This document shows, piece by piece, positions 4,901 to 21,752 of a DNA stretch of 64,000 nt (position 1 is its first letter; each line of letters starts with the position of its first letter). Origin of the DNA: Reinekea thalattae (GTDB taxonomy: Bacteria; Pseudomonadota; Gammaproteobacteria; Pseudomonadales; Natronospirillaceae); contig NZ_VKAD01000001.1 of NCBI RefSeq assembly GCF_008041945.1, forward strand, positions 806,001 through 870,000. Reading direction: 5' to 3'. The notes under the pieces were generated by a model. The model worked only from the letters and a program-made list of their open reading frames with translations. It made no database searches and had not been told where the DNA came from. The position numbers were made by a program, and so were the translations under genes.

Positions 4901-5023
4901 TCGGTTATGGGCGGGATGATCGCAGCAACGATCTTAGTGGTTTATTTTGCGCCGCTGTTTTTTGTCATGATCGTCAAGCTAGCTCGCCGCGGCAACAATA
5001 AAGAAAGCGCTAACGCGAACTAG
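1904..5023 (+). CDS. RND multidrug efflux pump, AcrB/MexB family (HAE1)
   Basis: Proton-driven trimeric exporter of the inner membrane. The 1039-aa length, N-terminal transmembrane helix, two large periplasmic loops and two six-helix blocks match AcrB. The proton-relay residues are present: the Asp pair in [18 protein letters not shown] (about residues 404-421) and the Lys in [14 protein letters not shown] (about 929-942). The segment [20 protein letters not shown] near residue 36 is a hallmark of the HAE1 hydrophobe/amphiphile group. It follows the adaptor gene by 10 bases. It most likely exports hydrophobic drugs, dyes or detergents; the exact substrates cannot be read from the sequence. 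Confidence 0.95.
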
Positions 5024-5061
5024 TTTTAGCCTAGCTTTATTAAAACTGCCCTCTACCCGAC

Positions 5062-5085
5062 TGGCGCTCCAAAAATGGAGCGCCA
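5062..5085 (+). repeat. 9-bp-arm hairpin without T-run after the RND operon
   Basis: TGGCGCTCC and GGAGCGCCA form perfect 9-base arms around a 6-base AAAAAT loop, 39 bases after the pump stop codon. No T-run follows, so it is more likely an mRNA 3'-end stabiliser or a weak terminator than a classic intrinsic terminator. Confidence 0.5.
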
Positions 5086-5272
5086 ATGTGTTCAGGGGTA
5101 ACAACAGGGTTAAATCACCTTAAAGTAAATAGCTTAATAACTTAGTAACTTAATAATTTAGCGCCTATAACCGCTGACGCTATTTGAATTGCAATTGCTT
5201 AGTAGATAAGTTCGACTTCAACCTAAAGAATATAAATCCAAAAAAATAAACCTAAAAGCTAGTAAGTCATAT

Positions 5273-5304
5273 AAAAAAAGCCAAGCTCGTTGCTTGGCTT
5301 TTTT
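5273..5304. terminator. bidirectional intrinsic terminator
   Basis: GCCAAGC (5280-5286) and GCTTGGC (5292-5298) are perfect arms around a 5-base loop, flanked by A7 on the left and T6 on the right. It can therefore stop transcription from both the RND operon (plus strand) and the convergent lipoprotein gene (minus strand), whose stop codon is 27 bases away. Confidence 0.88.
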
Positions 5305-5330
5305 AGCAGTTATAACTCAGCATGGAAAAA

Positions 5331-5885
5331 TTAACTGCCTGCTGAGGCGACTAGCTTTCTATTAAACTCTTTCACTTTATCCGAAAAAATAGAAGGCTGA
5401 TAAAGCACTGTGTCTGGCTCGCCTTCTGCCTGAATAGTAATTTTAAAAACAAAGTTGGTACTACCCTGCTCATAAAGCCAAGGCGTTTCATCTTCATTAA
5501 TTGCAACACCGCTGGTATTAGCGCGCCATATACCATTATTCAAAGACGCTGCGTTATCTTCTACCATCACTTTGCTTACATCACCCGGTGCAACCTGCTC
5601 GACTAACACGCGCGTTAACGTCACCGGCTGTTTAGCAGCAAAAGCAAAGCCCCAAATTAATTCAGACTCTTTCGATGCCGTAACCGAAAAACCCGCAGCG
5701 CGAACCTTGTAGGTTTCGTTCTCGGCAGGAATCGGCCCATTCACTGTTACCGGTAAAGCAATCTCTTGCCCTTCGGCAAGGTTGAATGTTTTATTGGTCA
5801 CAAGTTGGCCAGCATAAAAACTTGGCGTGGTACAACTCACAGCCATAACAACAAGCATCAACAATACAATTCGATGAATCATCAT
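5331..5885 (-). CDS. uncharacterised lipoprotein, 184 aa
   Basis: I do not recognise a family. The N-terminus is a clear lipoprotein signal: two Met, Arg, a hydrophobic stretch and a lipobox ending AVSC at about residue 18, followed by Thr-Thr-Pro, which suggests export to the outer membrane or periplasm. The mature part is about 165 residues, looks mostly beta-rich, has no further Cys and ends in a short helical tail. An AAGGA sequence lies just upstream of two adjacent ATG codons (5885 and 5882); either could be the start. The gene is monocistronic, with the bidirectional terminator directly downstream. Confidence 0.75.
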   Translation of the reverse strand: MMIHRIVLLMLVVMAVSCTTPSFYAGQLVTNKTFNLAEGQEIALPVTVNGPIPAENETYKVRAAGFSVTASKESELIWGFAFAAKQPVTLTRVLVEQVAPGDVSKVMVEDNAASLNNGIWRANTSGVAINEDETPWLYEQGSTNFVFKITIQAEGEPDTVLYQPSIFSDKVKEFNRKLVASAGS

Positions 5886-6092
5886 ATTTTCCTTTTGGTG
5901 TCGAACCTATTTTAAAAATGGATAGCCTTCCTACACCAGATGCTACTTGTTATATGCGGTTTAAAGCAACCGCTTAGAGAGGTGTATTTATAAATGGTCG
6001 CATTTATAAATGCCCAAATAGCCAAGACCTCAAGCGGGTTTTAATTGGTTAAAAACCATAGCGCCCGCTGCAAAATTATACTGGCTGGTCAG

Positions 6093-6491
6093 CTAGGCTC
6101 TGCAAGCAACGGCTTCGATTTCAATCAACAGCTCTGGAGCGGCCAATGAGCTAACGCCGACGCCGGTTAATGCAGGCTTTGAGCTTTCTAAGTATTCTTT
6201 GAGTACTGGCCCTAGCTCGGCCATATATTCGCTGACCTCACCGCGCACGTATATGCGCACTTGCAAAAGATGATTCAAGCTTGACCCTGCTGCTTCTAAT
6301 GCAAGCTTAAGGTTCTCAAATGCGGCTCGAGCTTGGCCTGCTATGCTGTTTGCGGAAATTTCATGCTCGACACTCCAATCGACCTGACCAGATACAAAAA
6401 CCAACCCATGCTCGGTTGAAATCGTTGCCTGAGACATACCATTGGGTGTTGCATCATAAAGGGTTTTTGGGTTTACAGTGATTATTGTCAT
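6093..6491 (-). CDS. Rid (YjgF/YER057c) family protein, non-canonical
   Basis: At 132 aa this is a trimeric Rid-fold protein, recognisable from GLVFVSGQVDWS (about residues 29-40), the helix AFENLKLALEAAGSSLNHL and the C-terminal LLIEIEAVA strand. RidA hydrolyses reactive enamine/imine intermediates such as 2-aminoacrylate. In RidA the catalytic Arg sits in the PARSCVEV-like strand; here that strand reads KPALTGVGVSS with no Arg. This points to one of the Rid subfamilies that are not classical imine deaminases. It lies 87 bases downstream of a LysR gene on the same strand, with a 25-bp palindrome between them, so the LysR protein may regulate it. Confidence 0.88.
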   Translation of the reverse strand: MTIITVNPKTLYDATPNGMSQATISTEHGLVFVSGQVDWSVEHEISANSIAGQARAAFENLKLALEAAGSSLNHLLQVRIYVRGEVSEYMAELGPVLKEYLESSKPALTGVGVSSLAAPELLIEIEAVACRA

Positions 6492-6557
6492 GTACGTTAA
6501 GCTCTAAAAAAATGGAGCAATTACTTTAGAGTTTACCCGCCAGCAGGACTACCAACT

Positions 6558-6582
6558 GTAGGTTGTAGCTGCTACAACCTAC
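6558..6582. promoter_or_regulatory. 25-bp perfect palindrome between LysR and Rid genes
   Basis: GTAGGTTGTAGC (6558-6569), a central T, then GCTACAACCTAC (6571-6582) form a perfect inverted repeat. It overlaps the stop codon of the LysR gene and lies 67 bases before the Rid gene start. No T-run follows on the minus strand, which speaks against a terminator. The half-site TACAACCTA recurs at 7548-7556, upstream of the LysR gene itself, which suggests a binding site for that LysR protein. Confidence 0.5.
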
Positions 6583-7478
6583 TGAGCCACTTCATCATTC
6601 ACAATATCTATGATGGTGTTTCTGATGTGCGCAAACACAGGGTCTTCGGCCTGACTTGGGTGATAGGCTAATACAGATTGGAAGCCCGGCGGTGAGCTTT
6701 CTAATTGCAATTCAATAAGGCCGCTCTCCGGCAATAGCCTAGAGGGTAAAAATGCCAAATAATTGGTCTGCTTAACGATTTCTTTGGTCATCGAAAAGCT
6801 CGACGATGATACCGCGACCTCGCGCTCATAGCCTTTTCGGCGCAACCAATCATCCGCAGAACCTTTAAAGGCTGGCACGCTCGGGTTGGTTACCACAAAG
6901 GCATGTTGGGTTAAATCTACCAAGCTAACAGGCGATGTCTGAAACAGCTTTTCATTTGATGTAACACATCGATACTGCTCAACAAACAAATCGTCTGTTA
7001 GCAGGCCATCAGGAACATAACCTTGTGAGGTTAAGGCTAAATCTATTTCCCCGGCACTGAACTTACGCACCAGCTCGGACGATTCGATATTAATTAAGAT
7101 CAACTTAATGCCCGGCGCACTGACCGATAACTTGGCAATCAACTTGGTTACAACCACCTGTTGTAGAAAATCGGTAGCGGATATGGTGATAACCTTTTCA
7201 ACCAATTGAGGGTCGGCATCTACCGGCAAAGGTATTTGGACAATGCTATCAAGCGCCGCCTCTACAAATGGAAATATCTTTTTAGCGTAGGGAGTTGGCA
7301 CAACGCCATGCCCAGACTTTACAAATAGCTGATCGCAAAATTCTAGCCGCATTTTTTTCAGCTTTACGCTGAGTGCTTGCTGCGATGTATTTAACTTTTC
7401 ACTTGCGGCGGTAATATTTTTTAACTTGTAGATTTGTCTAAAGGCTTTTAAATGGTGAAGTTCAATATTGTCTAGCAT
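6579..7478 (-). CDS. LysR-family transcriptional regulator
   Basis: A 299-aa protein with an N-terminal winged helix-turn-helix (about residues 5-65; the recognition part includes LNTSQQALSVKLKKM) and a C-terminal periplasmic-binding-protein-like effector domain (about 95-290). It starts MLDNIELHHLKAFRQIYKLK, a typical LysR opening. The Rid gene follows on the same strand and is its most likely target or operon partner. The HTH is a little unusual in its high Lys content. The inducer is unknown. A repeated TACAACCTA half-site, before this gene and in the palindrome at its 3' end, could be its operator. Confidence 0.92.
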   Translation of the reverse strand: MLDNIELHHLKAFRQIYKLKNITAASEKLNTSQQALSVKLKKMRLEFCDQLFVKSGHGVVPTPYAKKIFPFVEAALDSIVQIPLPVDADPQLVEKVITISATDFLQQVVVTKLIAKLSVSAPGIKLILINIESSELVRKFSAGEIDLALTSQGYVPDGLLTDDLFVEQYRCVTSNEKLFQTSPVSLVDLTQHAFVVTNPSVPAFKGSADDWLRRKGYEREVAVSSSSFSMTKEIVKQTNYLAFLPSRLLPESGLIELQLESSPPGFQSVLAYHPSQAEDPVFAHIRNTIIDIVNDEVAQ

Positions 7479-7547
7479 AAATACTTCCGTAATTTTTTAT
7501 TTATCTATTTAATACCGAACCTCAATAGCGTTTTTAGTTTTTCTAGA

Positions 7548-7556
7548 TACAACCTA
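7548..7556 (+). promoter_or_regulatory. TACAACCTA half-site upstream of the LysR gene
   Basis: This 9-mer is identical to the right half-site of the palindrome at 6558-6582. It lies 70 bases upstream of the LysR start codon, a usual position for an autoregulatory LysR site. It sits in the small imperfect dyad CTAG-N7-CTAG. It is a single half-site, so this remains tentative. Confidence 0.35.
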
Positions 7557-7621
7557 GCACTCAAGAATAAAATTTATTTTTTCTGAATTAGCTAGATTGC
7601 TTTGTTAAAGTGAGCGTATTG

Positions 7622-7641
7622 GTCAGCTTTGTAAAGCTGAT
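7622..7641 (-). repeat. hairpin after the DUF5677-like gene
   Basis: On the plus strand GTCAGCTTT and AAAGCTGAT form near-perfect arms around a tight loop, 13 bases past the stop codon of the DUF5677-like gene. No T-run follows on the minus strand, so it is a weak terminator at best. Confidence 0.4.
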
Positions 7642-7653
7642 CTATCAATTACC

Positions 7654-8541
7654 TTAAATATCGTCAACCATTTCATCATGCTCTTCAATGATTTTATTTA
7701 CGGGGGCCGCTGCAGTAATTATATCTAAAAGTAAATCATCTCGTTCGGCCTTTATGCAGCACCTAGCGACACATTCAGCAAAAAGGCCAACAACTAATGC
7801 AGACAAATATATTGCAAACGAAGCTTTTTCATCAAAGTAGGCAGATATGCTTTCTGTTTTTTCTTCAGATGGTAAAGACTCTCTATATAAAAGTTGATAT
7901 ATATCCTCAGATAGCGAGTGAGTAGAGTTTGATGCTGGGGCAAATATATGATGATAAGCACTTTCTAAGCCAATAGACCTAAACTTTTCCTGAGTACTAG
8001 GCCAACGAGGTATCGAGCCAGAAAATATCGATGGCATAGACTCTCTTATTATATCGACTATTTTAATTTTTAATTTCGCTGCAAAGACCTCTTCTTTTAA
8101 TTTATTTTCCTCAGCATACTCAAGCCATTTTTTTACATTGTTCTTTGAGTTCCTATGATAATCTTTGAGTAATGACTTGGCGTTATCATTATCTTTACCA
8201 GAAATCACATACATTAAATTGGCTGAAAATTCACATGAGGATCTAGACAATATCTCTGCTGTTGAATACGATTTAGTCCTTAAGCAATAAATAATATTCG
8301 TGTTTATTTCGTTGATATTATAAAGAATATAATCCATGTTCAGCTTCATAATAGTATATTTTATTTTCTCGTTTTCACCGGGTTTAAGCTTTTTAGAAAT
8401 GCCATATATCTGCTTCTGACAAGCATCAATAGGATCAATGTGATTTAAGTGCTTTTTCCAATTCTCTATATAAACCTTTAAACTCATACGAACTCTAAAA
8501 TCATAGTGGTATTCCTTACAAAAATCAGACACCTTACTCAT
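7654..8541 (-). CDS. AT-rich helical protein, DUF5677-like
   Basis: A 295-aa, mostly alpha-helical, soluble protein. The layout recalls DUF5677 proteins: a helix with repeated Tyr/Leu and an Arg-Ser-Ser-Cys-Glu segment (about residues 98-104), a KWLEYAEE helix (about 137-144), and a HIFAPASNSTHSLSED segment (about 200-215) in place of the usual S-x-x-HG stretch. This is a by-eye match and only moderate. DUF5677 proteins have no settled function; the fold looks HEPN-like, but I see no R-x4-6-H RNase motif. Codon use is strongly AT-biased, unlike the housekeeping neighbours, which suggests transfer. It lies 260 bases after druE in the same direction with its own possible promoter, so it may be cargo or an accessory defence gene. 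Confidence 0.6.
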   Translation of the reverse strand: MSKVSDFCKEYHYDFRVRMSLKVYIENWKKHLNHIDPIDACQKQIYGISKKLKPGENEKIKYTIMKLNMDYILYNINEINTNIIYCLRTKSYSTAEILSRSSCEFSANLMYVISGKDNDNAKSLLKDYHRNSKNNVKKWLEYAEENKLKEEVFAAKLKIKIVDIIRESMPSIFSGSIPRWPSTQEKFRSIGLESAYHHIFAPASNSTHSLSEDIYQLLYRESLPSEEKTESISAYFDEKASFAIYLSALVVGLFAECVARCCIKAERDDLLLDIITAAAPVNKIIEEHDEMVDDI

Positions 8542-8612
8542 GCGGAAATTGTCGCGTCATCTTAAAATTCAACAACGCCCAGCACATAGCTTTCGAAATG
8601 CCTTCTCTTGCT

Positions 8613-8618
8613 ATTATA
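8613..8618 (-). promoter_or_regulatory. candidate -10 element of the DUF5677-like gene
   Basis: The minus strand reads a perfect TATAAT here, 71 bases before the start codon at 8541. The -35 region is poor (no TTGACA-like hexamer at 16-18 bases). It suggests that this gene can be expressed apart from druHE. Confidence 0.35.
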
Positions 8619-8801
8619 AAGACGTCAATATAACCAAATAGACTAAATCTAATTTCATCAACCGACTAGTAGTTTTTTTTGCGTAGATCAACCCTACCTT
8701 AAATCGAGCAGAGAAGGATTCCATAACAGCATCACCCCGACAATTTCCCTTACCTGTCATGCCCCTAATTATATCCGAAGCTCGACTTTAATTTTAAAAC
8801 T

Positions 8802-11800
8802 TTAAACGTTTAAAACACTTACATAGATCGCTGTTGGGTGATCTGACCTTGTATAAACCTTCAAGCTATCCTTTATCCGAGCTAACTCTTTAATCTGCTC
8901 TTCATAGGAATTATCAAAATCGAAACGGCCATCAATGGACCAATGGCCAAAACCTTGATCAAAAATCACTTCAGCTTTATCGCCTGATTCAAATTCGATG
9001 ATCATGGTTCGAAAATGTGGGAGTTCATGAGTGTTGTAGTGAAGATGAAAATCGACTTGCCCTTTTGATTCTAATTTAATCCATATTTGAGCTACCTTTT
9101 TAAAATCTTCCTCCCATCGCCAATTATTTCTAAGCCGTGTTGGAGACCATTTAGAGTCTTTATCTAAAAAGTGTGTAGATACGTTAATGTTAGTTCCTGA
9201 ATTTATCGCCAACTCACCAACGAACTCAGCGAGCATTAACACAACTTCTGGACTTTTAAGATATCGGTCTGAATAAGAAATAGATTTAACAGTTTGATTA
9301 TCTAGTAACGCTTTAAAAGCAGGAGACTTTTGGCATAAGCTGTCGACCAGCCTCGCCCCAAAACCTGTTAATCTTCCATTTAGCTCCTTATGAGGCTTTA
9401 TCTTTACAGTTTTTTCTAATTCTATAACTGGCTCAAAAGAGATAACCTTTCCAACAATTTCATCTTCATAATTCGAAATAACGACAGGCTCTCTGGTCTC
9501 CAACCATTCAGAACCTAAAATCCTTGGTTCATCAGACTGCACTGCTGCCGATCTCCACCCCTTTTTTGTCTTGGCTTGGAATACTACATGGCCTTTATAT
9601 TGCGAGGAGATATGTTTAACTCCAATTCGCTCCAATTGATATAAATACTCTCTTACCTCATCGCCAAATTCTGTTTCTGGTAACAAGAATGAAACGTCAA
9701 CGTCACGCTCTAAAAATGCATAGAGCCAAGGTTTCACAATAGAAAGTGACAAATCCCAAGAATCTACGTTCTCCGATAGAATAAATTTAACTTCAGAGAC
9801 TCCTTGGTTTAGCCACTCCGTCATTTGAGACCTAAGTGGTCGGGGGCAATATTCCGCACCATGAACAAGCCCAATGAGGTTTTCGTCTAATTTGATATAT
9901 TGCGTAAAGTTTTCGCCTAGCCAATCAAGTGCAGCATGTCGATCGAGCTTGTCTACGTCATGTCTACTATCAACCTCTAACAAACACTTAGAACATGCGT
10001 CGTTACAGTTTGAGATACAGTGGAGTTCATTTACCATACCCTTTAATACTGCTTCAATGTGAGACGGTGCCGAAGTAGCAAAGCCTGCTCCACCACTAAC
10101 AGCATCAAAAAGCTGCAGCACCAAAACCTCTTTACTTCCCTCAACGATCGCAGGCCGAATACTATAATTGATCTCGTTTTTTGATATACCGAGTTGTTTT
10201 GTGAGCGCCGCTCTCAAAGCTACAACGAGAGTCGTTGCAATAATCCGACCTGCTTCATCATCTGATATGTGCTCACCGGTAGCGGGGTTCATTAGCGCCA
10301 GCTCAAATACATCAGTTGCAGTGTGTGCACCCAAATGTATTCCAGGCATTAATTTAGCACTTCCCGAACATTCTAAGAGTTTATTGTCCTCGCCTTTATC
10401 AAACTTAGTTGGCCTCGGTGGAGTGTGAATACCATCTGGTGTAAGTGCTTTTGGAAACTCACCTATTGATGTCATTGATTCAGCTTTTCCACAAGCTAAA
10501 CATATAGCGTAACCGTTACCATTGTGGCCAGAACTATGATAGAAAACTGAACCGTTGCTATCAACCTTCATAGTTCCCATTCCACGGTAAGGTAAAGTAA
10601 TCGCAGACGTGCTTGCACTCACCCATGCTGGCTGAACAGGTACGAATGACTGATTCTGAAAGTTATTAGTAGGCTCTTCATAGAAATCAACTGCAAACCC
10701 TGCTGGCCGTAGCACCTTCTTTTGACAAACAATATCGCCTGAAGATAAATGAATACTAGATGGGATCTTCTTACCACAGTGCTCATTAGTACAGAAAAGG
10801 TCAACTTGATCCTTCTTGTTAGCACTATCTTCATAACCAGTTTGTCCGCAATGGGGGCAACGCCAAGCAAGGTCGAATTTTTGATTGTCTTTTAACCCGC
10901 TCATGACACCAGTTAACGAAATACCAGCGACTCTGTGAACTCGACCATCGAGGGCAACTTCACTTCCAGGTGCATACTCTCTTATCGCCATCGCTAGATT
11001 GCGAGAAGGCATCTCTCGACTTCGAGATACATTGTCTTCACGTGTATTGGTATTCTTCTTTTTCTCTTGTCGCCTGATAAAGTCTGCAACATTATCGATG
11101 TCTAGGTTTACAACATCCGTGGGGAAACCGTATCCAGGTAGAAACCCTCTTGTTGCAAGGTCTTTAAGTAGGTATTCACTGCACAAACGATGTTTTTCAC
11201 TCTCTAGCTTAAAAGCATAAGGAGATTCAACTTCCGCAATCTTTAGTTGCTCTTCTAAATACTCGTAATCCTCTATCCATCGTGTTTGTATTTCGTTCAA
11301 TTTTTTAATTGCACTCTCAATCAACGAGTTTGAAGATGCTCCCGTTAATGCAGTACCAGTAACAATTGTCTTGATTCCATTTCGATATTTTGGCTTTAAA
11401 AACTTTACCCAGTTCTTAAACTCATTCGCAAACGAGTCACGACTACCCTCAGGCAAGAAAAACCATATAAGCTGCAAGTTAATTCGTTCACTTTTGGTAG
11501 CCTCTATTTGCGTTGTAAGAAAAGTTCCCAAGAGATAAGAGTTTACGTGCCTTTGTACAAGCTTCGCGGAGCTAAACTCAACATGAGGCGCTGGGATACT
11601 TGTTACGAATGGCCAAGTGGGTTGGTTAAATACACCCAAATCATGAGGGTTCGATTTACAAATTGTATAACTTAGTGCTCTAGCTTCCTTAGATCGGCCA
11701 GCTCGACCGGCGCGCTGGAGAAAATTCGCTGGATGCGGAGGAACATTGTTCATCACTACCGCTGATATCCCACCAATATCAACTCCCATCTCCATGGTTG

Positions 11801-14800
11801 TGGAGCAATTCAATACATTCTTTCGACCTAGCTTGAACTGTTTCTCATAAAGTTTAAGAGTACTAGCTCCTTGCTGGGCTGAATGTTCTGCCGTTGTATA
11901 ATAGAAGCCTCCTTCGACGGCTCTATCATTGATGTCAGTCCACAGGTTTCTTTCACGAAGACCCTGAACAACTGTATTTTCAATAGTTAACTTCCTCTTA
12001 ATAGAAACTTCAGTTAGGGGATCTTCACCGTCTGCTTTGATATTCCATACATCGGGTAGAACTATCTTCTCGCACTCTAAATCTTGGTTTGATTTATTCC
12101 GCGCTAAGTAAGGTGTAAAACCTCTGAATGCCCTATTCAGTATCTTGTTAGTTATCGGGCACACATAACCTGATGTGAGTAATGAAAAACTGACATTATT
12201 AAGGTTTAAACTGTATTGACTTGTTTCTGAAGACGCTGTTAAAAGTTTATTCTTTGAATCAACGAGTACTTTCCATGCATTACGAAGCCAGCTATTTATT
12301 AAGTCCTCGCCGGATGGGTTTTCTGGATTTATCGCAGTAGCCCGAATCAATATTTCTACAATTCTTCTCTGAACTCCCTTGCCTTTCTTATACATAGGCC
12401 ATTTCTTTACTCTTACTTCTTCATCATCTTTTGAATCTGGAGATATCAGTGTTTTCGAGCTAAAAAGCATTCCTATCCACTTTTTCCAGTCTCGATTTAT
12501 ATCGACGAAAGTGTTTTCTCTTATAAAAAAGTCCATGCAAAAGTATAAGTAGTCCTTCCAATCATTCAGGTCTAGCCCATATTCGAGCCAATGTTCTGGA
12601 ACGCTCTCTAGTTGGTCGATTCCTGGATAAACTATTTGAATTAAGCCCTGGGTCTCTAAGTTGTTTTGCCGTTTTGGTCGTCTTGCGAACTCACGAGTCA
12701 ATAACATTGCAGCAAGGTCATTTTTCCCTGTATTTTTACCAAATACTTCAGGCGCAAGTCGTTTGTTTTCATTGAGCATGGACTCAGATAAGTCTCTACT
12801 TTTTACCAAACTATCAATTAATTCATCCCATGTAATCACAGATGGCGAAATGACAGTGCTACCGCTTTTCTTAACTTCAATATATTCTTGCAAGTACTTA
12901 GCCTGCTTAGGTGAGGCACTCTCAATAGCAGGCATCAAGGGTTCTAAAACATTTAAAGGCATAGAGGAATAATCTTTCACTTTTTCAAATAATTCATCTG
13001 AAACAGCCTCATTCTCTTCAATCATGCTTTGCAAACGCTCAAAAACCAATCCTCGCAATTTAGAACGCTCTGCTTCTTGCTGCATTTTTATTGACATCTT
13101 TGCAGTGCCTTGTCGACTATCAGTAAAAGTTATTAGTCTTCGGCCTCTAGCAGGAAGCATATTCGGACCAGGATCATCCTTTTTCTCTTTTACAGCATCG
13201 GGGCAATACTCTAGTACAGTTGGAATCGCGTTAGTGGTATAGAAAGGTGCGCCTAATAAAGCACGTCTAAATGGCTTTCCGTGTGGCCCACGACCTTTGA
13301 AACCACACGATCTACACTGCTCAGCATCGCTTTCTAGCTGCGCTAGCAATATACTATCGGGTTCGGAACTGCCAACAATTCCCTTTCGGCTAACTTTGGT
13401 CGGCAAGTATTCAGTTTCTTCATTTGGCAAATATGAAAAAACTTCTAATCGTTCTCTCGTAGCTTTAGGGTGTTGATCAGACCTGCTTTCATCAAACTCT
13501 TTTTCACCTTCATCCAAGAGAGAGAACTCGTCATTAACTTTTCCTGTCCATTGCATCAACTTAGGAGGGCTCGACACTTGAGGCTTTGACAACCCAATAA
13601 GATGAGGCTCATTACACTCCTGACAGAATGAAACTTCCAGTACAGGGAATCCACAAGTACAGGTAGAACGGTTTTGACCATAAACCATGCCGAAGGGCCA
13701 CTCACCGTATAAAGGAGTGCTCTTTTTATCTGGACAGTTAGTATCAATGCATGACCAGAGGCCTTGCATTGTACGTTGAAAAAAATGCGCACGAATTTTT
13801 AAAAATGCTTCACCATTGCTGGTTTTTCTTGTTGCTGTACAAACATCAAGCCATCTGCCTAGCTCAGCCTCAGTCAATTTGTATTTCTTTAGCGCATGCA
13901 GAATTTCATCAGTGGTTTGAGGTCGGCCATTTTCTTTGGTTAACAAGGTCCTCAGCTCTCTGGCCAAACATGAGCTTTCCAATGCGCTATATCGCTTGTT
14001 CGAAACCTCTTTATCTGCTTTAGCTTTTTTACTAACTGGATCTTCACCTTCAGGTTCAATACTCAGAATTTCATATAAAGGAAGATCTTGGGCTAAAGGG
14101 TTATCCAGCTTTGGAGTAACTCTACGCCCTCCAATAACAACAATCTGATCTGTCGACACCCCCGCCAAGTCAGACAGGTATTGCTTCAATTGCTCCTCTG
14201 CTTCTTCTCCAGCGATCGTTGCTGAAGTAGCAACGAACCTCACATTTTTGGCTTCCACTTCAAACGCTTGAAGTACCCGCTTAAGCTGAAGTGCCAGTTC
14301 AGCAGCTTGGGAACCCACATAGGTATGCGCTTCATCCAGCACAATCCAACGAAGCTTACCTTTAGACTGTTCGATTATTGGTGCATCCGATTGCCTGACA
14401 AGCATATACTCAAGCATTGTCCCATTTGTTACGAGAATTGATGCTGGGTTCTCACGCAATTGATTGCGTGACATAACTTCCTGGGGGTTCTTTGCTTGAA
14501 CCTGCTTTTGTTGTGCATTCAGATCATCAGGCGTGTTTCTATTAAACAAACAGAATCGGATATCACCATTGAAGTGGCTAGACCAGGCATTTAATCGCTC
14601 TCTCTGGGAGTTAATTAAAGCATTAAGTGGGTACAAGAAGAGTGCACGTACGCCAGTAAGAGCTCCTTCAGTTTGGCTTTCCCGGTATAAATCCTCTAAT
14701 ACCGGCACCATAAAACACTCCGTTTTACCAGAACCTGTACCACTGGTGATCACCGCAGACTTAGGATTAGAGTCGAGCAATGTATTCCAACTGGATAACT

Positions 14801-15098
14801 GGTGCTCAAAAGGCTTCCATTCCTTCTTGAAGGCATAACGCCCATTATCATCCGAGTCGAGCGCATCTATTAGACCTGACGATAAAGTACTCCCTGCTAA
14901 TTCACTCACTATGGTTTCTGACTGCTCCCAGCCAAACATTTGCTCCAAAACTGGACCATTTAAAAAAGGGTCAGCCCCATCAAACTGTTCTGCCAAATGC
15001 TTTCTTAATCCAGGATTACTAATGCCCAGAACACTTAAAGTCGATTCTTTAGCTCTCTGGTTAGCTTGTTCCTTCAAATCTATAAAAAACGGCTTCAT
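8802..15098 (-). CDS. druE: DruE-like giant DEAH helicase with DUF1998 domain (Druantia type III)
   Basis: A 2098-aa superfamily 2 helicase. Motifs seen: Walker A GTGSGKTE (about residue 120), DEAH (255-258), SAT (292-294), then in the second RecA lobe STTMEMGVDIGG and QRAGRAGR (about 1126-1133). Cys clusters suggest zinc sites near 447-492, 592-595 and 1412-1440. A DUF1998 module (about 1560-1720) shows DAVSGGAGFAT and a CISNCNDACSKCL cluster. The last 370 residues are not explained; they look like a degenerate phospholipase D-type fold without the HxK motif. A giant DUF1998 helicase is the hallmark of Druantia anti-phage systems, and pairing with a DruH-like protein marks type III. Its ATG overlaps the druH stop by four bases (ATGA), with GGAG upstream, so the two are translationally coupled. 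DISARM was considered, but it has separate helicase and DUF1998 genes. Confidence 0.85.
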   Translation of the reverse strand: MKPFFIDLKEQANQRAKESTLSVLGISNPGLRKHLAEQFDGADPFLNGPVLEQMFGWEQSETIVSELAGSTLSSGLIDALDSDDNGRYAFKKEWKPFEHQLSSWNTLLDSNPKSAVITSGTGSGKTECFMVPVLEDLYRESQTEGALTGVRALFLYPLNALINSQRERLNAWSSHFNGDIRFCLFNRNTPDDLNAQQKQVQAKNPQEVMSRNQLRENPASILVTNGTMLEYMLVRQSDAPIIEQSKGKLRWIVLDEAHTYVGSQAAELALQLKRVLQAFEVEAKNVRFVATSATIAGEEAEEQLKQYLSDLAGVSTDQIVVIGGRRVTPKLDNPLAQDLPLYEILSIEPEGEDPVSKKAKADKEVSNKRYSALESSCLARELRTLLTKENGRPQTTDEILHALKKYKLTEAELGRWLDVCTATRKTSNGEAFLKIRAHFFQRTMQGLWSCIDTNCPDKKSTPLYGEWPFGMVYGQNRSTCTCGFPVLEVSFCQECNEPHLIGLSKPQVSSPPKLMQWTGKVNDEFSLLDEGEKEFDESRSDQHPKATRERLEVFSYLPNEETEYLPTKVSRKGIVGSSEPDSILLAQLESDAEQCRSCGFKGRGPHGKPFRRALLGAPFYTTNAIPTVLEYCPDAVKEKKDDPGPNMLPARGRRLITFTDSRQGTAKMSIKMQQEAERSKLRGLVFERLQSMIEENEAVSDELFEKVKDYSSMPLNVLEPLMPAIESASPKQAKYLQEYIEVKKSGSTVISPSVITWDELIDSLVKSRDLSESMLNENKRLAPEVFGKNTGKNDLAAMLLTREFARRPKRQNNLETQGLIQIVYPGIDQLESVPEHWLEYGLDLNDWKDYLYFCMDFFIRENTFVDINRDWKKWIGMLFSSKTLISPDSKDDEEVRVKKWPMYKKGKGVQRRIVEILIRATAINPENPSGEDLINSWLRNAWKVLVDSKNKLLTASSETSQYSLNLNNVSFSLLTSGYVCPITNKILNRAFRGFTPYLARNKSNQDLECEKIVLPDVWNIKADGEDPLTEVSIKRKLTIENTVVQGLRERNLWTDINDRAVEGGFYYTTAEHSAQQGASTLKLYEKQFKLGRKNVLNCSTTMEMGVDIGGISAVVMNNVPPHPANFLQRAGRAGRSKEARALSYTICKSNPHDLGVFNQPTWPFVTSIPAPHVEFSSAKLVQRHVNSYLLGTFLTTQIEATKSERINLQLIWFFLPEGSRDSFANEFKNWVKFLKPKYRNGIKTIVTGTALTGASSNSLIESAIKKLNEIQTRWIEDYEYLEEQLKIAEVESPYAFKLESEKHRLCSEYLLKDLATRGFLPGYGFPTDVVNLDIDNVADFIRRQEKKKNTNTREDNVSRSREMPSRNLAMAIREYAPGSEVALDGRVHRVAGISLTGVMSGLKDNQKFDLAWRCPHCGQTGYEDSANKKDQVDLFCTNEHCGKKIPSSIHLSSGDIVCQKKVLRPAGFAVDFYEEPTNNFQNQSFVPVQPAWVSASTSAITLPYRGMGTMKVDSNGSVFYHSSGHNGNGYAICLACGKAESMTSIGEFPKALTPDGIHTPPRPTKFDKGEDNKLLECSGSAKLMPGIHLGAHTATDVFELALMNPATGEHISDDEAGRIIATTLVVALRAALTKQLGISKNEINYSIRPAIVEGSKEVLVLQLFDAVSGGAGFATSAPSHIEAVLKGMVNELHCISNCNDACSKCLLEVDSRHDVDKLDRHAALDWLGENFTQYIKLDENLIGLVHGAEYCPRPLRSQMTEWLNQGVSEVKFILSENVDSWDLSLSIVKPWLYAFLERDVDVSFLLPETEFGDEVREYLYQLERIGVKHISSQYKGHVVFQAKTKKGWRSAAVQSDEPRILGSEWLETREPVVISNYEDEIVGKVISFEPVIELEKTVKIKPHKELNGRLTGFGARLVDSLCQKSPAFKALLDNQTVKSISYSDRYLKSPEVVLMLAEFVGELAINSGTNINVSTHFLDKDSKWSPTRLRNNWRWEEDFKKVAQIWIKLESKGQVDFHLHYNTHELPHFRTMIIEFESGDKAEVIFDQGFGHWSIDGRFDFDNSYEEQIKELARIKDSLKVYTRSDHPTAIYVSVLNV

Positions 15099-18000
15099 TT
15101 CGTTTCTCCACTTACAAGCAAGCCAACAGTAGGAAGGTATGAAGCCTCAAACCATTGACGATCGAATTCAATTAATTGTTTAAACTGGAAGTAATCACTA
15201 GGGCTATCTTCTAAACCAAATAATTCTTTGAGAGTCATATGCCCTGTTACAATCAGCGCAGATAAAAACGGAGCATAAGTTACGGCCTTTTGGTAACCAG
15301 ATGGTTTATTGAGACCTTTCAGAAATGTCAGTTTTGAAAACACCAACTGCTCGATCTCGATACCATACGAAGAGGGCCAGCGTTCCACGTCAGAGGAATG
15401 CCGAAGTAAGTCTTGGAAGCACTCTGAAATCATGTGAGTATACAATAATTGGGTGATTCTAGTCTTGGCTGCTGCGCCTTCCTCTGGAGTAATGAACCCT
15501 GCTGTCAATAGAGGGCTAAAAGCAGAAATTTTCTTTATCTTTGTTGTAACTAAAGAATCTACCACACTATCTGGCAATCCTTTTTCTAGGAAAAAAGATT
15601 TATAGTTTTGGCTGGCATCATTCCAAGCTTTCAGGGATATCAAATCCCAACTTACATTGAACTGCTCTTGTAAGGCCTGCATTAAATCCAAAGGCTCTTC
15701 CAAACGAAATACTATGGAAGCTAAAACATCATCGTGTTTCACTGCTGACTTCCATACTTCAAAAGTAGAAAGAGGCAAATACGAATATGAGTCATAGAGA
15801 TCGGAAATAAACGTCCAGCTTGCGTGATTAAAATCACGAGACATTGCCAGTAAAACACTCGATATGACATGCTTGTTTACTTCCGGCTGAAAAACCGACA
15901 CTGCTTTATTTAAAGTATTAACTGAATCGTTAGCGAATTGTCGAGTTCCAGGAATAAAACCTGCTCTAAACTTCACCTCCGAATTTTTCGAAGGAACAAT
16001 CAAGCTCGGGGTATCAAAAGGCCTATCTAATTCATAGATTCCGGTCTCAACACCTTCACTGAGTCGACTACGTAATACTTTTGGCTTTGCAAGGGGATCA
16101 GCGAGATCGATAAGGACCGGCTTAGCTAACTTACCAGAACCAAACGATTGACTAACCTCAATCACTTTCTCGTTTCTTTCTAAGAGTGCTGAATAGTTTC
16201 CAACGCTGTATTGACGCGTCCTACAATCTCCTGATATTTCGATTGACACCTTGGCATCCAAGTCACCGGTAGCCGCCAGTATTTCTGTGATGTGATTCCT
16301 CAAATCGTAAAGTTTCACTTCCACGGGCAACTTACTTACTCGATACCTCCATGACGCAACGAAACTGGATTGGAACTTAGAACCACGAATAGATATCGCA
16401 TAGTTTGCCTTTCCAAAAGTCGCAGGGTAAAACACAACTCGACTACCCAAAAGCTCATCGACTGTCAGCGCTTTTGGTAAATCCGACCCATCTGCAGCAA
16501 AAGCTAATGCCCCCTGAGATGGAAAAGGTACAAGCACCTCAATAGGCAACGATTCGAGGTTAGCCTGTAAAAACATCCTCATTTCAGACGGTGGTTTTCC
16601 TTCAGCTTCCAATTCAAACCTTCGGCCATTTTTAAGTCTAATAGTCCTAATGTTTATACCATCACACTTAATACTAGATAATAGGGACCTAGAACTAAGT
16701 ACCTCAACAGCCCCAGATCTAGCAGAGCTTCCTTGAATCAGATTAATTTTTATGTCATCCGGAAGTATATTTAGTTTTTTGTAATAAAGAGTAACCCCTT
16801 GAGAATCTTTAAGTTTAACTGACTGTTTGCCATAACAACTTGCTGAAGTTATGTGTTCGGCAAGCTCTTTGCCGATCCAGGTTTGAGCGCTAAAATTAGA
16901 GCACTTCAACCTAGGCACCCCTAAGTATATTGGCTGACCTTCTTTCGATAGAAAATCCAGCGTTCTACCTTCAATTAAAACAGACTCTAAATCACTTGTA
17001 TTAGCCTTCGTGGAAATGACATAAATATCAGAGTGTTCGTCCCTATTCAAAGTAACCCTAAGGTCGCCGTTAAACTCTAAATTCTCCATACCTGAAACTG
17101 GTTGCACATCAAAAACATTTGTATTAGATGCATCTACTGAAGCATCCTTAGGTAAAAGTACGCCCAATTTTTCTGAGCGATGACTAACGCTCCCTGTACC
17201 AATTACGATTCGTTGATCATTCTTATGCTTTATGACGATAGGAATGTTTCCTATCTGAAGATCGGAACCTGGAATTTCCTCGCGGTAAATCTGCTTACCC
17301 GCTTGAGCGAAGACTAAGAATAGAGATTCTTCAGGCCTGTTTCTCCGATACTCACCACCGGGCTTACGAAGATAAACACGGGTAGTCTGTTCATCAGGAT
17401 TTGTTTGGATTTGGCCGACCGTCACCTCATCCAAAATCGAACTCCCTTCTTGAAGAAAGGCTTCGACACGTGCCCCTGTTAATTTTTCTGTAGGGGTTTT
17501 AAAATCAAACTCTTTCGCGAGTTTTATTTTCACAATAAAAGCGAGATCATCTGTAATATTACTAAGTCTTTGTTCAATAAAGATTCGAGATTTTTTTTCA
17601 ACTCGTTCCTTTCTTTGTATTGATGCAGATTTAAACAAACTGCTAATTAAATCCGACCCAGTTTTAGTTTCCATTGGTATTGGGAATTGCTTTCTCCACT
17701 CAGGCCCTTGCTCATCTAAGACCTCTACAATATTCATGTTCTCATCGAACTCATGCTTATCAGTTAGATGCAGAATCAATTCGACCATTCGCGAAACCAG
17801 TTCAACTGTCGTTTCCTTTTGAAATGCTTCTGGAAGCACACTCAATTCATGTCGAATAAAATCGTAAGTGCCACTGCCTAACGATTTCATATCATCATAG
17901 GAACGCAGAATACGCTTTAAGATGTTAACGATTCGACTATCTTCTTGAGAAATTAGCGCGAACGGCAAACCACCTTCACTAAACAAAGAACCCAAGTAGC

Positions 18001-18379
18001 TTTTACGATCCCCTTGGTAGGTTGAAACTGGTCTTTTCCAGAACTCGGTTAATCCTTTGTAAACAACATCTCCCCGCTCGTTTGCATCTAACTCAAAACC
18101 AAGAGTTGTCCAAATGCCATCCCAACTCCAGCCTATTAGGTACTCTCTTCGGTACCATTCCGCAGAAAACAAACAAAAAGCCGCACACCAAACTTTGTTT
18201 TTCCTTGGATATTCGGGTTTACCTAGATCACGAATAAGCATCTTTAACTCTTGATACTCTTCTGAAGTAACATGATACTGAAAAAGCGGCTGTCGTGATG
18301 ATGGCTTAGCAATTCCCTTTCTTTCCATCACGCCTTGTATAAAACTCATCAATTGCATTGAGTTTGTTGAACTAGCCAT
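15095..18379 (-). CDS. druH: DruH-like protein (STY4851/ECs_5259, YjiT-like family)
   Basis: A 1094-aa protein encoded directly upstream of the giant helicase. Its length, position and N-terminal region (for example CLFSAEWYRREYLIGWSWDG near residue 70) fit the STY4851/ECs_5259 (YjiT) family, which I equate with DruH of Druantia type III. The N-terminal 280 residues are helical, the middle (about 300-800) is beta-rich, and the last 250 are helical again. I see no nuclease, methylase or ATPase motif and no membrane segment, so the molecular role is unknown; it may recognise DNA or control DruE. ATG at 18379 is preceded by GTGAG at a usable distance. A good promoter lies 49-77 bases upstream. 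Confidence 0.78.
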   Translation of the reverse strand: MASSTNSMQLMSFIQGVMERKGIAKPSSRQPLFQYHVTSEEYQELKMLIRDLGKPEYPRKNKVWCAAFCLFSAEWYRREYLIGWSWDGIWTTLGFELDANERGDVVYKGLTEFWKRPVSTYQGDRKSYLGSLFSEGGLPFALISQEDSRIVNILKRILRSYDDMKSLGSGTYDFIRHELSVLPEAFQKETTVELVSRMVELILHLTDKHEFDENMNIVEVLDEQGPEWRKQFPIPMETKTGSDLISSLFKSASIQRKERVEKKSRIFIEQRLSNITDDLAFIVKIKLAKEFDFKTPTEKLTGARVEAFLQEGSSILDEVTVGQIQTNPDEQTTRVYLRKPGGEYRRNRPEESLFLVFAQAGKQIYREEIPGSDLQIGNIPIVIKHKNDQRIVIGTGSVSHRSEKLGVLLPKDASVDASNTNVFDVQPVSGMENLEFNGDLRVTLNRDEHSDIYVISTKANTSDLESVLIEGRTLDFLSKEGQPIYLGVPRLKCSNFSAQTWIGKELAEHITSASCYGKQSVKLKDSQGVTLYYKKLNILPDDIKINLIQGSSARSGAVEVLSSRSLLSSIKCDGINIRTIRLKNGRRFELEAEGKPPSEMRMFLQANLESLPIEVLVPFPSQGALAFAADGSDLPKALTVDELLGSRVVFYPATFGKANYAISIRGSKFQSSFVASWRYRVSKLPVEVKLYDLRNHITEILAATGDLDAKVSIEISGDCRTRQYSVGNYSALLERNEKVIEVSQSFGSGKLAKPVLIDLADPLAKPKVLRSRLSEGVETGIYELDRPFDTPSLIVPSKNSEVKFRAGFIPGTRQFANDSVNTLNKAVSVFQPEVNKHVISSVLLAMSRDFNHASWTFISDLYDSYSYLPLSTFEVWKSAVKHDDVLASIVFRLEEPLDLMQALQEQFNVSWDLISLKAWNDASQNYKSFFLEKGLPDSVVDSLVTTKIKKISAFSPLLTAGFITPEEGAAAKTRITQLLYTHMISECFQDLLRHSSDVERWPSSYGIEIEQLVFSKLTFLKGLNKPSGYQKAVTYAPFLSALIVTGHMTLKELFGLEDSPSDYFQFKQLIEFDRQWFEASYLPTVGLLVSGETK

Positions 18380-18598: not shown

Positions 18599-18675
18599 TG
18601 GTCGGGCATAGAGGATTTGAACCTCTGACCCTCGCCACCCCATGACGATGCGCTACCAGACTGCGCTAATGCCCG
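18599..18675 (-). tRNA. tRNA-Pro (anticodon GGG)
   Basis: A 77-nt cloverleaf on the minus strand, with C1-G72 and discriminator A73 as expected for bacterial tRNA-Pro, and CCA encoded. The acceptor stem is CGGGCAT/ATGCCCG; the anticodon loop is ATGGGGT with anticodon GGG; the T arm is AGAGGTTCAAATCCTCT. It closely resembles E. coli proL. Its place after ihfA-merR is the same as in Pseudomonas, and the accessory block begins just downstream. Confidence 0.97.
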
Positions 18676-18720: not shown

Positions 18721-19086
18721 TTATCCTGAGACTTTTAGCAGCTGTAGTACGGTTTCTAGCTCTTCGATCATTTCGCGAATCAGCGATTGATGCTGGTGCT
18801 GTAGGTGTTCGGCGTTTTCGGGTTCTGAAAGCTTTTGCCGAGCGCCGCCAATGGTAAAGCCATCTTCATAAAGTAGATGGCGAATTTGGCGAATCAGCAC
18901 GACGTCGTCACGTTGATAGTAACGGCGATTACCGCGGCGTTTTACCGGACTGAGCTGTGGAAACTCTTGTTCCCAATAGCGCAATACGTGCGGCTTAACC
19001 GCGCAGAGTTCGCTGACTTCACCAATGGTGAAATAGCGTTTGCCCGGTATAACCGGAAGTTCGTTATTCTGGCTCGGTTCCAGCAT
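18721..19086 (-). CDS. MerR-family regulator downstream of ihfA
   Basis: A 121-aa protein if started at the [11 protein letters not shown]. An in-frame TTG lies nine bases further upstream, but homologues known to me start at MLEP. The N-terminal MerR winged helix-turn-helix is clear ([25 protein letters not shown] split over residues about 15-40, then [13 protein letters not shown]). The C-terminal part is a short helix with no metal-binding Cys pair, so it is unlikely to be a metal sensor. The gene overlaps the 3' end of ihfA by 23 bases and is thus part of the pheST-ihfA operon. This orphan MerR is conserved at the same place in Pseudomonas; its targets are not known to me. Confidence 0.9.
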
Positions 19087-19366
19087 AGTTCTCAACCGTT
19101 ACCTTAAGTTTTTGGCCGGGTCTAAAGGTGACGACTCGGCGGGCAGAAATGGGTATTTCTTCCCCCGTTTTCGGGTTACGGCCTGGGCGCTGACGCTTAT
19201 CTCTAAGGTCGAAATTGCCAAAGCCTGAAAGCTTTACCTGTTCGTTATGTACGAGACTTTCACGAATTTCTTCAAAGAAAATCTCGACCATTTCTTTTGC
19301 TTCGCGTTTGTTAAGGCCAAGTTCCTCGTACAAACGGTCTGCCATTTCTGCTTTAGTTAGGGCCAC
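19064..19366 (-). CDS. ihfA: integration host factor alpha subunit
   Basis: A 100-aa HU/IHF-fold protein, beginning [20 protein letters not shown]. The DNA-intercalating arm has the segment [19 protein letters not shown], with the conserved Pro of the beta-ribbon tip. With IhfB (encoded elsewhere) it bends DNA sharply at specific sites and helps recombination, replication and transcription. It follows pheT by ten bases, the standard gammaproteobacterial order, and its end overlaps the MerR gene. Confidence 0.97.
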
Positions 19367-19376
19367 GCTGAGCTCC

Positions 19377-21752
19377 TTACCCCCTCAAGCTCGCATCGAA
19401 ACGGGTTTGAAGAGTGTTAATGATCGAATCCATAAACTGGTTAACTTCATCATCAGTAAGAGTGCGCGAAGGATTCTGCCACGTCAAGCCGAAGGCGAGA
19501 CTTTTTCGTTTAGAATCAATACCTTTGCCACGATAGATGTCAAACAGGTTCAACGATACCAGATCATCACCGGCCATTTCTTTGACCGAGTCGACAACAC
19601 CACTGACCGATACATCTTCATCGACCACCACGGCTAAGTCTCGCGAGGTAGAAGGATGCTTAGACAGCGGGCTGAATTTTGGCAATTCGGCATGCTGGAT
19701 GCGGTCTAGGCGTAATTCGAACAGGTAAACGCTCTGCTTGATTCCAAAGAGTTTAGCAAAGTTTGGATGCAGCGCACCCAAATAGCCAACCAACTTGCCA
19801 TCGCGCTCAATACGCGCACATTGGCCTGGGTGTAAGGCGCTGTGTTTACCCGGCAAGAAGTCGAATTCGACACCGTGAATGCAGTTAAGCAGTTGCTCTA
19901 GATCGCCTTTTACGTCGTAAAAATCGACCGATTCGCCCTGCTCGTACCAGCCTTTGGCTAAACGAGAACCGGTTACCACACCAGAAATCATAGCAACCTG
20001 CTCTAGGCCTTTTTCTTCTTGGCGGAAGCGTAAGCCGCTTTCGAACAGACGCACGTGATCTTGCTGGCGGTTAAGGTTGTGCTGCAGTGCCTTTAATAGA
20101 CCTGGCCACAACGAAACACGCATGACTGACATATCAGCAGAAATCGGGTTTGCCAATTGGGCAGACGATTCGTTCGGGAACATCTGCTGCTGAATGCTCG
20201 GCTCTACAAAGCTGTAGGTTACCGCTTCTTGGTAACCGAGCGAGACCAATCGGTCAGCCAATACCGCCAACGGCGTTTGTTGCTCTGGCGTACCTTGCGG
20301 TTTTAGTTCGGCTGTTGGTGCAGTAATCGGCAAGTTGTTGTAGCCGTAAATACGCGCTAACTCTTCGACAAGGTCGGCTTGAATGGCCATATCGAAACGC
20401 CAGCTTGGCGCTTTCACTTTCCAGTAACCAGCGCTGCTTTGCAAAACAGTGAAGCCTAGGCCAACAAGAATTTGTTCAATGCGAGCATCGTCGATCTCAA
20501 CACCTAACATGCTGGTGACAACGCTGCTGTTGAGTTCAATTTCGGCGCAAACCGGTACCGTTTCGGCATGTTCGGTTAAAACGGCTGGGCCTGCTTTGGC
20601 ACCACAAATTTCAATTAACAGGGCACTGGCGCGTTCTACTGCCATTTCTTGCAATTGGAAGTCAACACCGCGCTCATAACGGTGGCTGGCGTCGGTGTGC
20701 AAACCTTTGGCACGGGCTTTACCGGCAATTTCGATCGGCGCAAAGAAGGCACATTCTAAAAAGACACGCTTGGTGGATTCGCTGACACCAGAATCTTTAC
20801 CGCCCATAATGCCCGCTAAGGCTAATGGGCCTGAGGCGTCGGCAATTAATAGTTCTGAAGAATCTAGCTCCAGTTCTTGGCCGTCGAGCAGGGTTAGCTT
20901 TTCGCCTTTCTGCGCTTTACGCACGGTGATTTTTTCGTTCAGGCTGTCTAGGTCGAAGCCGTGCAATGGCTGACCAAGCTCCAACATCACGTAGTTGGTG
21001 ATATCAACAACCGGGTCGATAGAACGCACACCGGCACGGCGTAAACGCTCAACCATCCAAATCGGCGTTGGCACAGTCACATCAACATCGTTAAACACGC
21101 GGCCAATGTAACGTGGGCAACCAACACCATCGGTAATTTCGACAGGGAAAGTATCGTTATGGCTGACTTCTACCGCTGGCGCTGCAACTTCTGTCAGCGA
21201 CTCGTTATTAAGCACGCTCACTTCACGGGCAATACCACGCACACTGAAGCAGTCGGCACGGTTAGGGGTTAAATCGATATCGATGGCGATGTCGTCTAGG
21301 TCTAGGTAATCGCGCAGTGACGTGCCCACAGGTGCGTCCGCTGCTAATTCCATAATGCCGTCGTGGCTTTCGGACAAGCCCAGTTCTTTTTCGCTGCACA
21401 ACATGCCGAAGCTTTCGGCGTCGCGCAATTTGGCTTTTTTGATTTTGAAGTCGCCCGGCAATACCGCACCGACTTCTGCAAAGGCGACCTTTAGGCCAGC
21501 ACGTGCGTTAGGCGCACCACAAACAACCTGCTGGCTATCGGTACCGTTAGTTACCTGACAAACACGCAGTTTGTCGGCATTTGGGTGTTGTTCGCAGGCG
21601 GTAATTTCGCCAATCACAACACCAGAGAAGGCTTCGGCAACCGGCTCGAAACCATCAACTTCTAAACCGGCCATGGTGACCTGATCCATTAGTTCTTGGG
21701 CAGAAATCGCTGGGTTAACCCAAGTACGCAGCCACTTTTCGCTGATTTTCAT
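19377..21752 (-). CDS. pheT: phenylalanyl-tRNA synthetase beta subunit
   Basis: A 791-aa subunit of the (alpha-beta)2 enzyme that charges tRNA-Phe. Domains in order: EMAP-type tRNA-binding fold (about residues 40-150), B3/B4 editing region (about 210-375), B5 winged domain (about 400-470), a catalytic-like core, and the C-terminal anticodon-binding FDX-ACB domain (about 700-790, with [20 protein letters not shown]). Its length and start [14 protein letters not shown] match the family. It lies 21 bases downstream of pheS in the same operon. Confidence 0.98.

What the first reader, a model, noticed from the sequence alone, without database searches (positions are those of the whole stretch)
8802..18379. 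Druantia type III-like defence operon beside tRNA-Pro
Seen: two large genes overlap by four bases, the second a 2098-aa DEAH helicase with Walker A, DEAH, SAT and QRAGRAGR motifs plus a DUF1998-type GG/Cys module. Known: a giant DUF1998 helicase (DruE) is the hallmark of Druantia, and pairing with DruH defines type III. Inferred: the 1094-aa partner is DruH, and the pair protects against phage. The locus lies between tRNA-Pro and a LysR gene, the kind of place where core-genome defence cassettes swap.
Basis: partly seen in the sequence, partly recalled or inferred. Interest (0 to 1): 0.75.

Follow-up and report, generated by a model that had tools for sequence, protein, structure and literature searches.

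The report
Druantia type III at tRNA-Pro hotspot
A marine bacterium (most likely a Reinekea species) carries a complete, intact copy of a known two-gene anti-phage system, Druantia type III, beside a proline tRNA gene where relatives keep other defence systems; the system itself is ordinary, and the shared insertion site is the more interesting part.

Summary
Window 8802-15098 (-) encodes a full-length type III DruE and 15095-18379 (-) its partner DruH, overlapping by ATGA. PADLOC places both in type III over nearly their whole length (2349 and 980 bits). DruH also passes NCBIfam's YjiT cut-off fivefold. Both match the solved E. coli Druantia III structures: 9TU7, E=2e-284, and 9TUD, E=2.5e-131 by profile. 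Helicase, zinc and C-terminal nuclease-like motifs are invariant across 12 homologues. In 392 order genomes DruE occurs in 12, all with DruH. Mechanism is already published for relatives (PMC13192584, PMC13316683); defence was not tested here.

Location: pheT-ihfA-merR-tRNA-Pro, the left flank of Pseudomonas aeruginosa's core defence hotspot cDHS1. In all six congeners examined, similarity ends just past the tRNA; one has BREX type I there. The same flank precedes BREX in Pseudomaricurvus and Pgl/BREX and type III restriction in other Pseudomonas. The system is a new member of a known kind; the cross-genus hotspot is the modestly novel part. The adjacent DUF5677 gene is not part of the module.

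The parts
15095..18379 (-). druH (1094 aa), YjiT/STY4851-ECs_5259 family; proposed infection sensor
   Evidence: PADLOC DruH3 PDLC00049 979.5 bits, residues 4-1085; NCBIfam NF038336 783.1 bits vs cut-off 150; PDB 9TUD DruH, phmmer 8.7e-22, profile 2.5e-131
8802..15098 (-). druE (2098 aa), YprA-family SF2 helicase with C-terminal PLD-like nuclease region
   Evidence: PADLOC DruE3 PDLC00037 2348.7 bits, residues 3-2094; PDB 9TU7 E. coli DruE E=2.4e-284, residues 7-2075
15095..15098 (-). ATGA overlap: stop of druH and start of druE
   Evidence: ORF coordinates; sequence printed
14196..14807 (-). DruE first RecA-like helicase domain (residues 98-301) with Walker A (14721-14741) and DEAH (14325-14336)
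   Evidence: Pfam PF00270 74.6 bits; invariant in 12 homologues
11694..11717 (-). DruE helicase motif VI QRAGRAGR (residues 1128-1135)
   Evidence: Pfam PF00271; invariant in 12 homologues
9981..10220 (-). DruE MrfA-like Zn-binding module (formerly DUF1998), residues 1627-1706
   Evidence: Pfam PF09369 39.5 bits vs cut-off 24.2; four Cys invariant in 12 homologues
8952..9017 (-). DruE C-terminal PLD-like motif H2028-x-R2030 ... D2047-x-G2049
   Evidence: invariant in 12 homologues; aligned with the same residues of 9TU7; this 249-aa C-terminal piece alone matches 9TU7 at E=4.1e-11
18599..18675 (-). tRNA-Pro(ggg), core-genome edge of the cassette
   Evidence: ARAGORN; similarity to the six congeners ends just past it, between about 18555 and 18597
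18721..21752 (-). core flank merR (18721-19095), ihfA (19064-19366), pheT (19377-21752)
   Evidence: NCBIfam TIGR00987 and TIGR00472 above cut-off; conserved in all congeners and in 78 of 78 loci with enough sequence

Best explanation
It is an intact Druantia type III anti-phage operon (druH-druE), most likely of a Reinekea species, inserted downstream of tRNA-Pro in the pheT-ihfA-merR-tRNA-Pro core locus. Most likely mechanism, carried over from published work on relatives: DruH, whose N-terminal activation surface is conserved here, senses a phage structural protein late in infection and changes oligomeric state. DruE, a dimeric YprA-family helicase, then loads on 3' single-stranded regions of replicating or recombining phage DNA, assembles along them, and cuts with its C-terminal PLD-like domain, so phage replication fails. 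Shown here: family membership, integrity, invariant catalytic motifs, consistent pairing, and the variable locus. Inferred: phage protection, the sensing step, and nuclease action of this copy.
For: PADLOC type III profiles hit both proteins nearly end to end. Solved E. coli Druantia III structures match both. NCBIfam YjiT_fam above cut-off. Helicase motifs, Zn cysteines and HxR..D.G are invariant in 12 homologues. DruH residues E74, R77, R78, W86, W114, L129, G136, G137 lie in the surface whose substitution abolished defence in E. coli (residues 63-137, including E75, R78/R79, W88, W115, G136/G137) and are invariant in all 12 systems compared, the window included. In 392 order genomes DruE was found in 12, all with DruH; the one extra DruH genome has only a 306-aa open frame. 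druH lies directly upstream of druE wherever both are intact. DruE and DruH divergence track each other (r=0.97 over 66 pairs, pairs not independent), with DruH changing faster, as published. recB and recD, which affect the published mechanism, are present in the genome. The defence-hotspot location is supported.
Against: No functional data for this copy. Two E. coli DruE residues needed for defence there are not conserved here in the pairwise alignments: R1258 (chain 1262) aligns with Ser1262 and R2075 (chain 2079) with Ser2064 (numbering offset of 4 taken from the Walker lysine). The C-terminal assembly details may therefore differ. Published models disagree on whether DruH and DruE bind stably: not detected in E. 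coli, essential in M. smegmatis. The AlphaFold model of DruH has low global confidence (pTM 0.47).
Confidence: 0.93

Rival explanations
1. The large protein is a generic YprA/MrfA-type repair helicase and its neighbour an unrelated protein; no defence system.
For: The helicase core does match YprA (6ZNP, E=1e-13) and other DEAD/DEAH families.
Against: The DruE3 match is full length at 2349 bits while generic helicase models cover only the core. The partner is DruH by three independent libraries. The pair co-occurs in all DruE-bearing genomes sampled.
Confidence: 0.01
2. It belongs to the phylogenetically separate Druantia type III-like branch, or to another YprA defence class such as ARMADA or TALON.
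For: Bell et al. describe a type III-like branch and sister classes with similar helicases but different nuclease domains.
Against: The region that carries the two PLD domains in E. coli DruE is present and alignable, with the C-terminal HxR..D.G residues conserved. Type III profiles outscore types I, II and IV by more than 1800 bits. DruH is adjacent. No tree with labelled type III-like references could be built here.
Confidence: 0.04
3. A recognisable but no longer functional Druantia III remnant.
For: No integrase beside it. druH is split in G223 and reduced to a 306-aa open frame in G039, so decay happens in the family.
Against: Both frames are complete, without internal stops, with invariant motifs and an intact ATGA overlap.
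Confidence: 0.03

Closest known systems
Druantia type III of E. coli (DruE 9TU7-9TUC, DruH 9TUD; PMC13192584)
   Same: Two-gene druH-druE system; full-length DruE match (E=2e-284) and DruH match (profile E=2.5e-131); conserved helicase, Zn, PLD-like and DruH N-terminal surface residues
   Different: Distant in sequence: E. coli R1258 and R2075 equivalents are Ser here. The E. coli clade is frequently carried on SPIDER phage-like elements with Zorya II and ARMADA II; no integrase or other defence gene was found beside this copy
Druantia III of plasmids and other chromosomes: Pseudomonas luteola plasmid, E. coli 64A:C, Marinobacter plasmids
   Same: DruE 40-45% identical and DruH 27-29% identical over nearly full length; same gene order where examined
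   Different: Other genomic contexts: a type I restriction system beside the P. luteola copy, an mdtM gene near the E. coli 64A:C copy
Druantia III of Mycolicibacterium smegmatis (PMC13316683)
   Same: Same two-component DruH-DruE type with published phage defence
   Different: Its DruE is 1667 aa and reported to lack a canonical nuclease domain
P. aeruginosa core defence hotspot 1, cDHS1 (PMC10250203)
   Same: Same left flank: pheS/pheT, ihfA, merR, tRNA-Pro
   Different: Right flank in P. aeruginosa is a small hypothetical gene and a DUF4011 gene; here a DUF5677 gene and a LysR gene follow the cassette

Membership tests
Druantia type III | DruE: giant YprA-family SF2 helicase matching type III profiles along its length | tested here: met
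   PDLC00037 2348.7 bits over residues 3-2094; best other type, DruE1, 515.9 bits
Druantia type III | DruH partner encoded next to DruE | tested here: met
   PDLC00049 979.5 bits; NF038336 above cut-off; 9TUD
Druantia type III | MrfA-like Zn-binding (DUF1998) module in DruE | tested here: met
   PF09369 above cut-off; four Cys invariant
Druantia type III | Two C-terminal PLD-like domains, the last predicted active | tested here: met
   C-terminal region aligns to 9TU7 with conserved HxR..D.G; tested by sequence only, the fold was not modelled here
Druantia type III | E. coli DruE R1258 and R2075, needed for defence there (not defining for the family) | tested here: not met
   Both align with Ser; single residues in divergent regions, where the pairwise alignment may be off
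Druantia type III | DruH N-terminal activation surface (E. coli residues 63-137) | tested here: met
   Corresponding residues invariant across 12 DruH; E. coli mutational data
Druantia type III | Phage protection | not testable with these tools
   needs experiment
Druantia types I, II, IV | Type-specific partner genes instead of DruH | tested here: not met
   Genes on the druE side hit no other Dru family; on the druH side lies the core tRNA-Pro flank
cDHS1-like core defence hotspot | pheT-ihfA-merR-tRNA-Pro flank with unrelated defence cassettes swapped between relatives | tested here: met
   Congener similarity ends after the tRNA; Druantia III here and BREX I in congener G003; pheT-ihfA-merR in 78 of 78 loci, tRNA-Pro within 600 nt of merR in 70 of 78. 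Enrichment over random loci was not measured

The most novel reading that the evidence does not exclude
The pheT-ihfA-merR-tRNA-Pro locus is an ancient defence landing site shared across several families related to Pseudomonas and Reinekea, not a P. aeruginosa peculiarity; Druantia III in this genome is one of its interchangeable occupants.
Probability: 0.65. Interest if true: 0.35.

Novelty: new member of a known kind. Interest (0 to 1): 0.25.

Why it matters
The operon adds a divergent, intact Druantia III (DruE about 44% identical to the closest E. coli copy found) useful for testing which parts of the published mechanism are general. The wider point is the site: the paper that defined cDHS1 in P. 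aeruginosa left open whether such regions occur in other clades. This locus, with Druantia III in one Reinekea, BREX I in another and BREX in Pseudomaricurvus, gives a partial answer and a cheap way to look for unknown defence genes in other genera.

Tried and rejected
Scan of genome contigs with DruE alone: four pattern matches, no confirmed relatives. attL/attR repeats: no copy longer than 11 nt of the tRNA-Pro 3' end elsewhere on the plus strand of the window and no convincing direct repeat bounding the cassette. DUF5677 gene as a third component: absent from the 12 Druantia loci of the order and found in only 1 other of 369 class genomes; rejected. Druantia in phages: no DruH match in the phage collection or in viral contigs. 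Foldseek of the DruH model found only chains of Ig/FN3-like sandwiches with global TM about 0.1, compatible with the reported Ig-like domains but not decisive; 9TUD was not among the matches listed. Zorya and ARMADA in this genome were not searched.

Full report
What is there. Two minus-strand genes, 15095-18379 (1094 aa) and 8802-15098 (2098 aa), overlap by ATGA. The block has 40% G+C against 45% and 47% on its two sides.

Identity. PADLOC assigns the long protein to DruE3 with 2349 bits over residues 3-2094 and the short one to DruH3 with 980 bits over residues 4-1085; other Druantia types score far lower. NCBIfam independently names the short one YjiT_fam (NF038336), 783 bits against a cut-off of 150. 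The E. coli Druantia III proteins have solved structures: the long protein matches 9TU7 at E=2.4e-284 over residues 7-2075, and its C-terminal 249 residues alone at E=4.1e-11. DruH matches 9TUD at E=8.7e-22 by single sequence and 2.5e-131 by a profile of 11 relatives.

Integrity and conservation. In 12 DruE homologues the Walker lysine, DEAH acids, motif VI arginines, four Zn cysteines and a C-terminal H-x-R ... D-x-G set are invariant. In DruH, E74, R77, R78, W86, W114, L129, G136 and G137 are invariant across 12 systems; in E. coli the corresponding surface is essential for defence. Two E. coli DruE residues that matter there, R1258 and R2075, align with serines here, so details of the C-terminal assembly may differ.

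Pairing. Of 392 genomes of the order, 12 have a DruE and 13 a DruH; the 12 are among the 13 and the extra one has only a 306-aa open frame. In ten of the twelve relatives' loci examined both genes match, with druH immediately upstream of druE (in one of these druE runs off the contig). The exceptions are G223, whose druH is interrupted after about codon 937 with its tail and druE about 17 kb away, and the G039 remnant. DruE pairs average 43% identity and DruH pairs 28%, and the two are correlated, r=0.97 over 66 non-independent pairs. The DUF5677 gene next door (7654-8541) does not travel with the pair.

Where it sits. A contig of congener G005 (C1, given as 1,927,789 bases) has the same length as Reinekea sp. 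G2M2-21 contig 1, so the window most likely comes from a Reinekea species; this is an inference from contig length. The cassette follows pheT-ihfA-merR-tRNA-Pro. In the six congeners fetched, DNA similarity to the window ends at or just beyond the tRNA, between about 18555 and 18597, and what follows has no match to this window; two of them (L029, L031) show near-identical gene layouts downstream. In one congener, G003, the site holds BrxB, BrxC, two PglX and a GmrSD-type protein, a BREX type I cluster.

The flank is that of cDHS1 in P. aeruginosa, where 31 kinds of defence system have been annotated and 83.7% of loci carry at least one. A scan with the merR family returned 80 named loci: pheT and ihfA lie just upstream in all 78 with enough sequence, and tRNA-Pro within 600 nt of merR in 70 of 78. 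Selected large downstream genes include BrxC in Pseudomaricurvus (with tRNA-Pro about 1 kb from merR), PglW and PglX in Pseudomonas sp. BN417, and a type III restriction enzyme in P. guariconensis. The picks were large ORFs, not a random sample; 9 of 16 gave no hit or only a marginal one, and enrichment over background is not measured. A phage-type integrase sits beside this tRNA in one Pseudomonas (L081); none lies beside the tRNA in the window.

How it probably works. Published work on relatives gives the mechanism. In E. coli, DruE is a dimeric YprA-family helicase that loads on 3' single-stranded tails, assembles on long ssDNA and cuts with a C-terminal PLD domain; DruH is the likely sensor with dimerisation-dependent nuclease activity, and no stable DruH-DruE complex was seen. 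In M. smegmatis, DruH-DruE contact is reported essential and a minor tail protein activates the system. This copy has the conserved parts that the E. coli model relies on, apart from the two residues above, and its genome has recB and recD. Phage protection by this copy is inferred.

Verdict. A genuine, ordinary Druantia type III at what looks like a genuine defence hotspot. New member of a known kind; the modest novelty is the cross-genus hotspot.

Noticed in passing
L028 (G003:C1:2106000-2124500), 2518-16428 (-): A BREX type I cluster (BrxB, BrxC, two PglX, GmrSD-type protein) occupies the same tRNA-Pro site in a Reinekea congener.
   Followed up: yes
L049 (G223:C1:1055000-1074900), druH at 6957-9824: druH is interrupted after about codon 937; its tail and druE lie about 17 kb downstream, suggesting an insertion inside druH.
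   Followed up: partly
window 7654-8541 (-): A rare DUF5677 protein (PF18928) beside the Druantia genes; only one relative in 369 class genomes; function unknown.
   Followed up: partly
L048:9470-9940, L050:6764-7228, L052:13392-13856, upstream of druH: ORFs of 154-156 aa sit just upstream of druH in three relatives; not present in the window, where tRNA-Pro is adjacent.
   Followed up: no
L093:10748-16000 (-) and L125:14144-18472 (-): Very large ORFs (1750 and 1442 aa) downstream of the same tRNA-Pro in Aestuariicella (kinase-like, PD-T4-6 match) and Pseudoteredinibacter (no PADLOC match): candidate unknown defence genes.
   Followed up: partly
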